Of a stretch of DNA of 64,000 nucleotides, positions 55,852 through 59,266 are shown piece after piece (position 1 is the first letter of the stretch; the number at the start of each line of letters is the position of its first letter). A program made the position numbers and the translations under genes. The DNA lies in contig NZ_JAMQGM010000002.1 in the NCBI RefSeq assembly GCF_023703325.1, positions 186,001 to 250,000 of the forward strand. The letters are read 5' to 3'. The DNA is from Streptomyces meridianus. Its GTDB lineage: Bacteria > Actinomycetota > Actinomycetes > Streptomycetales > Streptomycetaceae. Under the pieces are notes generated by a model. That model was given only the letters and a program-made list of their open reading frames with translations. It made no database searches and was not told the origin of the DNA.

Positions 55852-56223
55852 ATGGGCCGGTGGCGGGACGGCAGGGCGCGGTTGCACGTCGAGGGGGCGG
55901 GTGCCGCGGAGCGGGTGCCGGTGGAGGTCGCCGCGTCGTACCGGGCACGCACCCGCGGGCTCCTCGGACGGGACGGTGTCGAGGGCGTCCTGATGCTGAC
56001 GCCCGCGGGCAGTGTGCACACCTTCCGGATGCGGTTCCCGATCGATGTCGCCTATCTGGACCGGCACTTCGAGGTCATCGCGGTGCGCACCATGCGGCCG
56101 GGACGTCTCGGTCTGCCGCGGGTCCGTTCCCGCCACGTCCTGGAGTCGGCGGCGGGCGCGATGGACGGCTGGGGGATCCGGCCCGGGGTGCGGGTGCAGG
56201 TGGAGCCGGCCGGAGAGGGCTGA
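55852..56223 (+). CDS. DUF192 protein
   Basis: 123-aa DUF192 domain (TRGLLGRDGVEGVLMLTPAG, then SVHTFRMRFPIDVAYLDRHF), a small beta-rich fold in many bacteria, often secreted. Here no signal peptide is visible. GAGGGGG precedes ATG 55852. Function unknown. Its 3' end was the left boundary of the tandem duplication that follows: the C-terminal VEPAGEG reappears as VEAAGEG at the end of the next gene. Confidence 0.85.
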   Translation: MGRWRDGRARLHVEGAGAAERVPVEVAASYRARTRGLLGRDGVEGVLMLTPAGSVHTFRMRFPIDVAYLDRHFEVIAVRTMRPGRLGLPRVRSRHVLESAAGAMDGWGIRPGVRVQVEPAGEG

Positions 56224-57650
56224 GCGGCCCCGGGGCGGGGCCGGGCATCATGCGCCACCGTCAACAGCACTGCGATACAGGGGAGTTGCACATCCCGCTC
56301 TCTTGCGCGAACCGGCAGCGGGCAGCCACCCCGCCTGGCAGGATTCCCCTCATGTCGAACACACAAGCGATGACCTACCGGCGCGTGGGCATGGTCCTCC
56401 AGGAGATCGGCATGGTCTCCGAGGAGAAGGTGCGCAGCGTCCTGAAGGAGGCAGAGGAGTTCGCTGACGAGGAGATGGAGCACCACGAGGCGGCCGACGC
56501 CCTGGAGGAGTTCGGGGCAGCGGTCTCGGTCCACGCCGACGGCATCGACTCGATTCACTACGCCTACGCGGACCTGCTGACGGACGCCACCGCGGTGGCC
56601 GGCGACCGCGTCACCATCACCGACGTGCGACTCGTCGAGGGCGAGGGGGAACTCGCGAACGGACGTTTCGACACCCTGGAGTTCCGGCGGAACGGCAAGC
56701 CCGTCTCCATCAGCGCCGAGCACTTCGCCGACGACCACTTCAGTCTCGAGACCGCGTGCCAGGCCGTCCTCGCGACGGCAGACGAGGACGACCCCCGCTC
56801 ATGGTGCGAAGTCGGCTTCGAGCGCAAGCAGTACGCCGGCGGCGACACCGTCCTGGTCCTCGCCACGCCCGAGCAGGCGGCGGCGCTGCAGGAGCATCTG
56901 GGCTTCACGTTCCCCCACGGCGTCCGACGGCGCCGGGTGCGGGTGGAGGCGGCCGGAGAGGGCTGAGCGGCCCCGGGGCGGGGCCGGTCATCATGCGCCA
57001 CCGTCAACTTGTCCGGCAGACAGGTGGGTTGCATGTCGCGATCATTGTGCGAACCGGCAGTGGGCAGCCATCTCGCCTGACAGGATCCCCCTCATGTCGA
57101 ACACACAAGCGATGACCTACCGGCGCGTGGGCAGGGTCCTCCAGGAGATCGGCATGGTCTCCGAGGAGAAGGTGCGCAGCGTCCTGAAAGAGGCGGAGAA
57201 CTACGCGGACGAGGAGGTGGACCAGTACGAGGCGGCCTGTGCCCTGGAGGAGTTCGGGGTGGCGGTCTCGGTCCACGCCGACGACATCGATTCGATTCAC
57301 GAGGACTACGCGGCCCTGCTGACGGACGCCCTCGCGGTGGCCGGCGACCGCGTCACCATCACCGACGTGCGGCTCGTCGAGGGCGACGGCGAGCTCGAGA
57401 ACGGACGTTTCGACACCCTGGAGTTCCGGCGGAACGGCAAGCCCGTCTCCATCAGCGCCGAGCACTTCGCCGACGACTACTTCGACCACCAGGCCGCGTG
57501 CGAGGCCATCGACGGGACCGCGGATGCGGACGACCCACGCTCGTGGTGCGAAGTCGACTTCGAGCGCAAGCAGTACGCCGGCTACGACACCGTCCTGGTC
57601 CTCGCCACGCCCGAGCAGGCGGCGGCGCTGCAGGAGCATCTGGGCTTCAC
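56188..57650 (+). repeat. ~742-bp tandem duplication (unit 1 from 56188, unit 2 from 56935)
   Basis: The 3' end of DUF192, the intergenic sequence and the hypothetical gene recur with an offset of 742-743 bp (DUF192 stop 56221 vs 56964; ATG 56352 vs 57094; TTCAC 56904 vs 57646). Copy 1's gene thereby gained a C-terminus copied from DUF192. The copies have diverged, so the event is not recent. Confidence 0.92.
56352..56966 (+). CDS. Unrecognised protein, duplicated family, copy 1 (chimeric C-terminus)
   Basis: 204-aa acidic cytoplasmic protein I do not recognise. It begins MSNTQAMTYRRVGMVLQEIG, has a helical region with VSEEKVRSVLKEAEEFADEE, a beta-rich centre (DRVTITDVRLVEGEGE, RFDTLEFRRNGKPVSIS) and ends GFTFPHGVRRRRVRVEAAGEG. 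The last ~10 residues come from the DUF192 tail by tandem duplication. Upstream CAGGAT lies 7 nt before ATG, close to a leaderless promoter. The second copy follows and is broken by the insertion element. No cysteine or catalytic pattern stands out. Confidence 0.82.
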   Translation: MSNTQAMTYRRVGMVLQEIGMVSEEKVRSVLKEAEEFADEEMEHHEAADALEEFGAAVSVHADGIDSIHYAYADLLTDATAVAGDRVTITDVRLVEGEGELANGRFDTLEFRRNGKPVSISAEHFADDHFSLETACQAVLATADEDDPRSWCEVGFERKQYAGGDTVLVLATPEQAAALQEHLGFTFPHGVRRRRVRVEAAGEG

Positions 57651-57789
57651 CTGGAATCTCCGAGGGTGCCCCGGCCTTCAGGCCGGGGAGGGATCGGACT
57701 CCTGCGAAGCAGGGCAGGGAAAGCCGAATTGCCGTCAGGGGGATTCGGCGTCGGCCGCGGCGGCGTCGCGCTCGACCTCCAGCCGGTAG
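57094..57789 (+). pseudogene. Unrecognised protein, copy 2, interrupted by the TnpB element
   Basis: Paralogue of the preceding gene (MSNTQAMTYRRVGRVLQEIG start). Homology ends at GFT where TTCAC (57646-57650) meets the element's left end; the frame then runs 46 codons into the element and stops at 57789. Without the insertion the sequence would continue GTTCCCCACGATG from 59207. The truncated protein keeps most of the conserved region, so it might still be expressed with a foreign tail. Confidence 0.8.
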
Positions 57790-57893
57790 ACGATCTCGGA
57801 ATTGAGGGACCTGCGGGCGGACCTGGCCTGAGCGGCCAGCCACTCGTGCAGGTCGGCGGGCAGACGGAGCGTGATGCGCTTCTCTTCATCCAT
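57735..57893 (-). CDS. Arc-family ribbon-helix-helix protein of the element
   Basis: 52-aa DNA-binding protein (MDEEKRITLRLPADLHEWLA, then QARSARRSLNSEIVYRLEVE). Arc-type ribbon strand plus two helices. ATG 57893 follows a -10-like TACTCT by 6 nt on the minus strand. It is divergent from tnpB, and a perfect palindrome (TGGTCGACCA, 57918-57927) lies between them. It probably represses both promoters. Confidence 0.75.
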   Translation of the reverse strand: MDEEKRITLRLPADLHEWLAAQARSARRSLNSEIVYRLEVERDAAAADAESP

Positions 57894-57899
57894 GACCCC

Positions 57900-57937
57900 A
57901 GAGTAGTGGGTTTCAAGTGGTCGACCAGTGGTAGAAT
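57900..57937. promoter_or_regulatory. Divergent promoters and operator of the TnpB element
   Basis: Minus-strand -10 TACTCT (57900-57905) for the Arc gene; plus-strand -10 TAGAAT (57932-57937) for tnpB, each 6 nt before its ATG (leaderless). The 10-bp palindrome TGGTCGACCA (57918-57927) lies between. Confidence 0.6.
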
Positions 57938-57943
57938 GACACC

Positions 57944-59167
57944 ATGTCGACACGACCGGCGGTGAATGGGGATACCGGACATGCCCGGTACACCTACCGG
58001 CTCCCCGTGTCGTCGATCGCCCGCACCGCCCTCCTCGCCGAGTGGGCGCGGTGCCGGTGGGTGTGGAACGAATGCGTGGCCATGTCCCGCAAGGACCACG
58101 GCCTGAACAAGGGCGCCACCGAGAAGGCGACGTGCGGCCCAGCACAGCTCGACAAGATGCTGACCGAGGCCCGTCATTCCATGTCGTGGCTGCGTGAGGG
58201 CGCGTCGGTGCCGCAGCAGCAGACCATCCGGGACTACGGCAAGTCCCGCTCCAAGGCGCTGAAGGACATCAAGGACAGGCTTCCGATACGGCGCCGGTCC
58301 GGGATGCCCCGGCCGAAGAAGAAGCGCGAGGCGCTGCCCACGCTCAACCACACCACTCGCGGCTTCCGGCTGAAGGACGGCCGACTGCACCTCGCGGGCG
58401 GCATCGCGTTGACGGTGGTGTGCTCGCGGGAACTCCCGGCCGCACCATCCTCGGTACGCGTGTACCAGGACTCCATCGGCCACTGGTACGCCTCTTTCGT
58501 CGTCGCCACCGAGACCCAGCCGCTTCCCGCGACGGGCCGCATCCTCGGCGTGGACTGGGGCGTCAAGGAGACCGCGACCACCACGAGTGACGCGTACGAC
58601 TTCCCCCACGCCCAGCACGGCAGAACCGCCGCGCAGAAACTCGCCCGCTATCAGCGGATGATGGCCCGGCGTAAGCCGCCCAAGGGCAGGCCCGGGTCGA
58701 AGGGCTACCGGGAAGCGAAGCGGCAGACGGCGAAGCTGCACAAGAAGGTCGCCCGCCAACGGCAGGACACCACCCGCAAGTGGGCCAAGCGCGTGATCCG
58801 TGACCATGACGCCATCGCAGTGGAGGACTTCCGGCCGCGCTTCCTCGCGAAGACCACCATGGCCCGCAAAGCGGCCGACGCGGCGATCGGTGCCACCAAG
58901 ACGGCCCTGATCGAGATGGGCCGCAAGCACGCACGGGATATCCGTCTCGTGCACCCCGCACACACCACCATGGACTGCGCGGCGTGCGGTGCGAGAACCA
59001 AGCACGCACTTCCTCTTTCGGAGCGTACCTACACCTGCACCGCGTGCGGAGTCGTATCCCCTCGGGACAAGAACTCCGCCCGCGTGATGCTGGTCCGGGC
59101 TGGTCTCAACCCGGCTGGTGCCGAGGGCGTAAGACCTGCGGGAGCGCTGCTCCCACAGGCAGCCTGA
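57944..59167 (+). CDS. tnpB: TnpB RNA-guided nuclease (IS605 family)
   Basis: 407-aa TnpB. All catalytic residues are intact: Asp204 in ILGVDWGVKET, Glu294 in IAVEDFRP, Asp375 in SPRDKNSARVM. The zinc ribbon is CAACG (Cys345/348) and CTACG (Cys365/368). The N-terminal recognition region contains the aromatic WARCRWVWNECVAM typical of the family. TnpB cuts DNA next to a TAM under direction of a right-end RNA; the likely TAM is TTCAC. ATG 57944 has its own leaderless-type promoter. Confidence 0.93.
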   Translation: MSTRPAVNGDTGHARYTYRLPVSSIARTALLAEWARCRWVWNECVAMSRKDHGLNKGATEKATCGPAQLDKMLTEARHSMSWLREGASVPQQQTIRDYGKSRSKALKDIKDRLPIRRRSGMPRPKKKREALPTLNHTTRGFRLKDGRLHLAGGIALTVVCSRELPAAPSSVRVYQDSIGHWYASFVVATETQPLPATGRILGVDWGVKETATTTSDAYDFPHAQHGRTAAQKLARYQRMMARRKPPKGRPGSKGYREAKRQTAKLHKKVARQRQDTTRKWAKRVIRDHDAIAVEDFRPRFLAKTTMARKAADAAIGATKTALIEMGRKHARDIRLVHPAHTTMDCAACGARTKHALPLSERTYTCTACGVVSPRDKNSARVMLVRAGLNPAGAEGVRPAGALLPQAA

Positions 59168-59222
59168 GCCAGGAATCCCCTCCCTTCAGGGAAGGGAGGA
59201 TGTCAAGTTCCCCACGATGTCC
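59070..59222 (+). ncRNA. Probable omega RNA (TnpB guide RNA)
   Basis: Approximate extent, inferred from known TnpB systems where the 3' end of tnpB and the right end form the scaffold. Hairpins at 59135-59159 and 59179-59199 precede the element end at 59206. The guide would be the next ~16 nt, beginning GTTCCCCACGATG. The 5' boundary cannot be read from sequence. Confidence 0.5.
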
Positions 59223-59266
59223 GGTTCCGGGCCCGGACGCCAGGTCACGAAGCGGCCCGCAGAGCA

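What the first reader, a model, noticed from the sequence alone, without database searches (positions are those of the whole stretch)
57651..59206. TnpB-only IS605-type element with boundaries fixed by a natural empty site
Seen: copy 1 of the duplicated gene reads TTCAC-GTTCCCCCACG without interruption, while copy 2 has TTCAC, 1556 bp, TCAA, then GTTCCCCACG. This defines both ends and predicts the TAM TTCAC. TnpB has all three RuvC residues and its zinc ribbon. Known: in this family the left target motif equals the TAM used by TnpB. It lacks TnpA, so it depends on a partner in trans.
Basis: partly seen in the sequence, partly recalled or inferred. Interest (0 to 1): 0.75.

Follow-up and report, generated by a model that had tools for sequence, protein, structure and literature searches.

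The report
TnpB transposon with its own repressor-like gene
A small Streptomyces transposon that carries an RNA-guided DNA-cutting enzyme, but no transposase, has ends that can be read from an uninterrupted gene copy nearby, and it also carries an overlooked tiny repressor-like gene that stays next to the cutter gene in many related bacteria.

Summary
Confirmed: window 57651-59206 is a 1556-bp TnpB-only (IS1341-type) IS200/IS605 element interrupting copy 2 of a tandem gene; copy 1 is the empty site. Dozens of relatives place the ends alike: left flank TCAC, right end TCAA.

Corrections:
1. The conserved motif, hence the predicted TAM, is TCAC; the base before it is T in only 47 of 114 sites.
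2. In genomes with names, 74 of 80 RHH loci have tnpB divergently beside it; three of the six misses are cut by contig ends. RHH also accompanies TnpBs of 24-32% identity. Both genes have -10-like boxes 6-7 nt before their starts, suggesting back-to-back leaderless promoters.

The ends largely follow IS608-type guide/cleavage-site pairing and the tnpB 3' end is a covarying omega-RNA. No Y1 transposase was found in the assembly or in 215 family loci, so help from a TnpA in trans is inferred.

Best reading: a Y1-mobilised TnpB element whose nuclease is probably repressed by its RHH protein. The element is ordinary; the RHH-tnpB module is a new variant as far as my paper searches reach. Nothing was measured.

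The parts
57651..59206 (+). whole TnpB-only IS200/IS605 (IS1341-type) element, 1556 bp
57646..57650 (+). left flank TTCAC; conserved core TCAC = cleavage site / predicted TAM
   Evidence: TCAC in 55 of 61 named and 43 of 71 genus-scan left ends
57665..57688 (+). left-end guide tetranucleotide GGTG (57665-57668) and hairpin CCCCGGCC-TTCA-GGCCGGGG (57669-57688)
   Evidence: GATG is the commonest guide in relatives
57735..57893 (-). RHH (Arc/HicB-like) 52-aa gene, divergent from tnpB
   Evidence: Pfam Arc 1.4e-7; 74 of 80 homologues next to tnpB; AF2 model pLDDT 91
57894..57943 (.). 50-bp divergent intergenic region; -10-like TACTCT (57900-57905, minus) 6 nt before the RHH start and TAGAAT (57932-57937, plus) 6 nt before the tnpB start
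   Evidence: family pattern
57944..59167 (+). tnpB, 407 aa RNA-guided endonuclease; D204, E294, D375; zinc ribbon C345/C348/C365/C368
   Evidence: NF040570 1.7e-66; PDB TnpB 8h1j/8bf8 4.2e-27
59057..59206 (+). omega-RNA scaffold region overlapping the tnpB 3' end (150 nt aligned)
   Evidence: 14 of 33 pairs with a compensatory change; covariation score 0.283 vs shuffled 0.102
59173..59206 (+). right end: guide GAAT (59173-59176), hairpin (59177-59196), cleavage site TCAA (59203-59206)
59207..59226 (+). flank that would be read as the omega-RNA guide
   Evidence: inferred from the right end and ISDra2 knowledge (PMC8612924)
57094..57650 (+). interrupted copy 2 of a tandemly duplicated gene
56343..56966 (+). 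copy 1, the natural empty site (TTCAC 56904-56908)

Best explanation
This is a non-autonomous IS200/IS605-type transposon (TnpB-only, IS1341 group). It moves, or moved, by single-strand excision and insertion 3' of TCAC, carried out by a Y1 TnpA supplied in trans that reads the two end hairpins and their tetranucleotide guides (inferred; the pairing pattern is shown for most ends). Its TnpB, loaded with an omega-RNA made from the tnpB 3' end, should cleave TCAC-flanked empty sites and so keep the element in place (cleavage is established for ISDra2; inferred here). A divergent 52-aa RHH protein, conserved with tnpB, most likely binds the short shared promoter region and represses tnpB and itself, keeping the nuclease low (inferred from fold, layout and conservation; binding not shown).
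For: Ends conserved in dozens of copies. Guide/site pairs read without assuming the rule: GATG/TCAC 39 of 100 rows, GATA/TCAT 3, GAGA/TCAT 2, GAAC/TCAG 1, AAAG/TTAC 1; guide base 4 is G in 64 and A in 4 TCAC ends, G in 2 and A in 5 TCAT ends, Fisher 1.4e-4, rows not independent. Right-end GAAT/TCAA in the family, GAAG/TCAC in Y1 loci L093 and L096. Internal-deletion copies keep both ends (L154 299 bp, L158 310 bp, L163 200 bp). Omega-RNA covariation. RHH: 74 of 80 named loci and 35 of 38 genus loci looked at, out of 57 places listed, have TnpB sequence in the locus, against 0 of 15 weakly similar RHH loci elsewhere in the phylum; kept with TnpBs of 24-32% identity; median dN/dS 0.31 after leaving out the ten codons used to find the sequences (24 codons, 70 sequences); TANNNT 6-7 nt before the tnpB start in 41 of 62 and before the RHH start in 46 of 62, about 3 expected each; nearest solved sequences are AmrZ, Mnt and Arc repressors.
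Against: No Y1 TnpA in this assembly, in 215 family loci, or in 25 of 56 carrier genomes. No TCAC left end was recognised in 30 Y1 loci (profile; pairing search; 24 also by eye). Misfits to the pairing rule exist: TTAC/GAGG twice, TCAT/GATG twice, and about 25 of 100 guides are out of phase or unreadable in my automatic reading. The intergenic region is not generally more palindromic than shuffles (mean z 0.33; 8 of 62 over 2), and arm symmetry exceeds permutation in one of four length classes, so no operator is located. RHH was not detected in 41 of 57 tree rows or in the second full copy in this genome, L002. No experiment was done.
Confidence: 0.75

Rival explanations
1. The element is an immobile relic or a stationary TnpB kept for its nuclease activity; the sites were fixed long ago and no TnpA acts now.
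For: Same-site copies in several species with flank and element divergence of similar size, intact TnpB and TnpB dN/dS 0.13-0.31; no Y1 found in this genome.
Against: This genome holds 98% and 96% identical fragments of the element on other contigs, internal-deletion copies with both ends exist in other genomes, and left ends are found at many different sites.
Confidence: 0.25
2. RHH is not a repressor of tnpB but acts on the transposon ends or on TnpB itself, or is an antitoxin-like passenger.
For: Pfam also calls HicB and FitA-like antitoxin RHH; the best structural Z-scores are to antitoxins, all under 8; no clear operator palindrome.
Against: Short divergent layout with both -10-like boxes a few bases apart; the closest solved sequences are repressors; no other clear gene in the element besides tnpB (by inspection).
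Confidence: 0.2
3. RHH is not a gene; the reading frame is conserved by chance or because the DNA is needed for another reason.
For: It is short, and many long chance frames exist at this G+C content.
Against: dN/dS about 0.31 over 70 distinct sequences with the search motif left out, Pfam Arc matches in 23 of 24 members at E up to 0.01, -10-like box at a fixed distance from the start.
Confidence: 0.03

Closest known systems
ISDra2 (Deinococcus radiodurans, IS200/IS605)
   Same: RNA-guided TnpB, guide RNA from the right end, target motif expected to equal the TAM (PMC8612924, passages seen)
   Different: ISDra2 encodes TnpA and uses TTGAT; here no TnpA, motif TCAC, plus an RHH gene
IS608 (Helicobacter pylori)
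   Same: end hairpins with a tetranucleotide guide at the 5' base (PMC7290912, passages seen); right-end GAAT/TCAA is the IS608 pair (recalled)
   Different: IS608 has TnpA and uses TTAC; the left end here is GATG-type/TCAC
IS1341-type TnpB-only elements
   Same: tnpB without tnpA
   Different: an RHH gene divergent from tnpB, not seen in the listings of my searches
AmrZ, Mnt and Arc repressors
   Same: RHH sequence and fold
   Different: not linked to an RNA-guided nuclease (recalled)

Membership tests
IS200/IS605 element | subterminal hairpins at both ends | tested here: met
   right hairpin covaries
IS200/IS605 element | tetranucleotide guides that pair with the cleavage sites | tested here: met
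   most ends; misfits listed there; window left guide GGTG needs one G-T wobble
IS200/IS605 element | insertion 3' of a short motif with no target duplication | tested here: met
   empty site copy 1
IS200/IS605 element | own Y1 TnpA | tested here: not met
   none found in the assembly or in 215 family loci. TnpB-only (IS1341-type) elements are defined by this absence
TnpB RNA-guided nuclease | RuvC D-E-D and zinc ribbon | tested here: met
TnpB RNA-guided nuclease | omega-RNA at the tnpB 3' end and right end | tested here: met
   covarying structure; its expression was not testable
TnpB RNA-guided nuclease | TAM-dependent DNA cleavage | not testable with these tools
   -
Arc/MetJ-type RHH protein | RHH sequence and fold | tested here: met
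   sequence; model; fold matches are individually weak
HicAB toxin-antitoxin | HicA toxin beside HicB | tested here: inconclusive
   no such ORF seen in the element; no HicA search run

The most novel reading that the evidence does not exclude
RHH and TnpB form a self-limiting homing module. The RHH protein silences the RNA-guided nuclease in cells that carry the element, while entry into a naive replicon, or loss of the element, derepresses TnpB and triggers cutting of empty sites. This would be a transposon with a built-in repressor that decides when its genomic scissors act, and it could explain long-lived stationary copies under selection.
Probability: 0.3. Interest if true: 0.8.

Novelty: new variant of a known kind. 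Interest (0 to 1): 0.55.

Why it matters
How TnpB-only elements keep a potentially dangerous nuclease in check, and how they persist without a transposase, is unsettled to my knowledge. A repressor-like gene kept with tnpB in Streptomyces and related actinobacterial genera gives a testable handle on both. It also supplies a TnpB family with a firm predicted TAM (TCAC) and a structured omega-RNA.

Tried and rejected
TTCAC as the TAM: rejected in favour of TCAC. A palindromic RHH operator common to all loci: not supported. A TCAC-ended autonomous TnpA element as partner: not recognised among the 30 Y1 loci read, out of over 100 Y1 matches listed in 46 of 150 genomes; the negative is soft. Empty sites in other species: 5 of 120 genomes have a long match (75-80%) to the duplicated gene and none shows the window's right flank beside it; two of four homologues whose end I could read finish with a similar TTCCC tail. 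RHH on plasmids: no match. Rfam: only a sub-threshold HgcC match, E 0.055. The five GAAG/TCAC right ends came from a search that demanded the pairing; only L093 and L096 are independent of it. My first dN/dS for RHH (0.26) included the ten codons of the search pattern; without them it is 0.31. One PDB match, 9pio chain G 'Arc family DNA-binding protein', was not identified further. Rows dropped: three TnpBs with an internal stop (L010, L117, L132) were left out of the tree, and L113, whose RHH frame is broken, was labelled RHH there; 18 of 80 named loci gave no left-end and 16 no right-end profile hit; 18 of 80 gave no usable intergenic region.

Full report
Observation. TTCAC (57646-57650) is followed by 1556 bp that end in TCAA (59203-59206) and then GTTCCCCACG. 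The tandem copy upstream reads TTCACGTTCCCCCACG without a break. The match after the junction is short, about 18 nt with one gap, but beyond chance: 3 of 20,000 random window sites reach its score. No target duplication is seen. Two of four distant homologues whose end I could read finish the gene with a similar TTCCC tail, in keeping with a junction in the gene's last codons.

Family evidence for the ends. This genome holds 8 BLAST matches to the element, including a second long copy (87%, without a detected RHH gene) and fragments at 98% and 96% identity. In the genus, 99 of 150 genomes have a match. From 97 oriented loci (two of them duplicates) I built profiles of the left and right ends without their flanks and read the flanks they imply. 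I then applied the profiles to 80 loci from genomes with names. In the named set 55 of 61 distinct left ends are TCAC, 3 TCAT and 3 other. In the genus scan, which includes weak hits and Y1 elements, 43 of 71 are TCAC, 9 TCAT, 3 TTAC, 1 TCAG and 15 unread. Two cautions: the 37 sequences behind the left-end profile were picked for having TCAC (though the flank was not in the profile), and the named set shares some genomes with the genus set (100% pairs; duplicates were removed). The base before the motif is T 47, G 39, A 15, C 13 of 114; the window is 14% T and 35% G, so T is favoured but not required. The predicted TAM is therefore TCAC, not TTCAC.

Mechanism of the ends. [quoted passage not shown] The exact rule used here (guide bases 1-2 pair with site bases 2-1, guide base 4 with site base 4) is recalled. 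Read without assuming the rule, the commonest pair is GATG/TCAC (39 of 100 rows); TCAT goes with GATA (3) or GAGA (2), TCAG with GAAC (1) and TTAC with AAAG (1). Guide base 4 is G in 64 and A in 4 of the TCAC ends, G in 2 and A in 5 of the TCAT ends (Fisher 1.4e-4; rows share ancestry). Misfits are TTAC/GAGG (2) and TCAT/GATG (2), and about 25 of the 100 guides are out of phase or unreadable by the script. At the right end GAAT goes with TCAA, and in the Y1 loci L093 and L096 GAAG goes with TCAC; three more such right ends came from a search that demanded pairing. The window copy has GGTG, one wobble away from GATG. These are marks of Y1 transposition, although the element has no TnpA. No Y1 gene was found in the assembly or in 215 family loci. 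Genomes rich in the family have Y1 genes more often, 31 of 56 against 15 of 94 (P about 1e-6, confounded). Trans-mobilisation is thus inferred, not shown. Short derivatives that keep both ends (L163 200 bp, L154 299 bp, L158 310 bp) resemble the PATEs described in PMC7290912.

TnpB and omega-RNA. TnpB (407 aa) matches NF040570 at 1.7e-66 and solved TnpBs at 4.2e-27. D204, E294, D375 and four ribbon cysteines are present; each of the four motifs was found in 56 of 57 TnpBs tested, the window's included. The last 150 nt of 29 elements that I picked fold into a common structure reaching into the coding region: 14 of 33 pairs show compensatory changes, 97.5% of cells pair, and the covariation score is 0.283 against 0.102 in shuffles and at most 0.061 when slid. 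Related sequences can beat the shuffles without structure; the slides guard against that in part.

The overlooked gene. On the minus strand, inside the element, lies a 52-aa RHH gene (57735-57893), matched by Pfam Arc at 1.4e-7. Its AlphaFold model has mean pLDDT 91 and two helices. By sequence its profile is nearest AmrZ, Mnt and Arc; by fold it matches AmrZ, Arc, CopG and antitoxins, but with no Foldseek E under 0.001 and every Z under 8. A pattern scan of one genome for each of 84,980 species found 109 relatives and kept 80, from Streptomyces, Streptacidiphilus, Actinacidiphila, Acrocarpospora, Nonomuraea, Planomonospora, Nocardiopsis, Actinomadura, Wenjunlia and one actinobacterium without a genus name. 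Of the 80, 74 have tnpB divergently beside RHH: 70 within 250 bp, and 4 whose first aligned tnpB base is 316-369 bp away. Of the six without, L278, L280 and L284 begin at a contig end; L244, L254 and L267 do not. In the genus, 35 of 38 RHH loci looked at (57 places were listed) have TnpB sequence in the locus, 11 of them a TnpB of only 24-32% identity to this one. As a control, 0 of 15 weak RHH hits elsewhere in the phylum have a TnpB match in their locus. RHH is a minority companion: in 61 genomes TnpB matches far outnumber RHH matches, and RHH was not detected in 41 of 57 rows of the TnpB tree, where the label needs 10 changes. That fits repeated loss but also exchange. The gene evolves under constraint: median dN/dS is 0.31 over 24 codons of 70 distinct sequences, the ten codons of the search pattern left out.

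Why a repressor. The gap between the two start codons is mostly 17, 28-29 or 50 bp. A TANNNT box lies 6-7 nt before the tnpB start in 41 of 62 loci and before the RHH start in 46 of 62, about 3 expected each in shuffles (related loci are not independent). In the window these are TAGAAT (57932-57937) and, on the minus strand, TACTCT (57900-57905). The simplest reading is two leaderless promoters back to back, with RHH binding between them. A general palindromic operator was not found, so the binding site stays open.

Persistence. Groups of elements sit at the same nucleotide in different species, with element and flank divergence of similar size. The eleven TnpB pairs tested in them have dN/dS 0.13-0.31. 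Either the copies were inherited for a long time under selection, or they re-home to the same site; both would fit TnpB-driven retention as proposed for ISDra2 (PMC8612924, passages seen).

Novelty. The element itself is a new member of a known group. The RHH-tnpB pair did not show in the listings of my searches or in passages of three papers. Three TnpB papers that I asked for are not held, so prior description cannot be excluded.

Noticed in passing
L009/L229, L230, L238, L270; and L246, L247, L255, L265: Elements at the same nucleotide in several Streptomyces species; the TnpB pairs tested are intact and under constraint: long retention or re-homing.
   Followed up: partly
L093, L096 (also L097, L100, L104): Y1-bearing elements whose right end uses GAAG/TCAC instead of GAAT/TCAA: a natural swap of guide and cleavage site (for two, a search that demanded pairing, for all five).
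   Followed up: partly
window 59096-59219: Sub-threshold Rfam match to HgcC RNA over the right end (E 0.055), perhaps an omega-RNA-like resemblance.
   Followed up: no
L003 (own genome C20) and L005 (C6): A 98% identical 3' piece keeping the right end and a 96% identical left-end piece of the same element elsewhere in the genome.
   Followed up: partly
phage records KX620752, NC_041890 and five others: Propionibacterium freudenreichii phages carry a TnpB 49% identical to this one.
   Followed up: no
window 56191-57344: Tandem duplication of an unknown gene with its upstream region; neither copy has a Pfam or NCBIfam match at 0.001.
   Followed up: no
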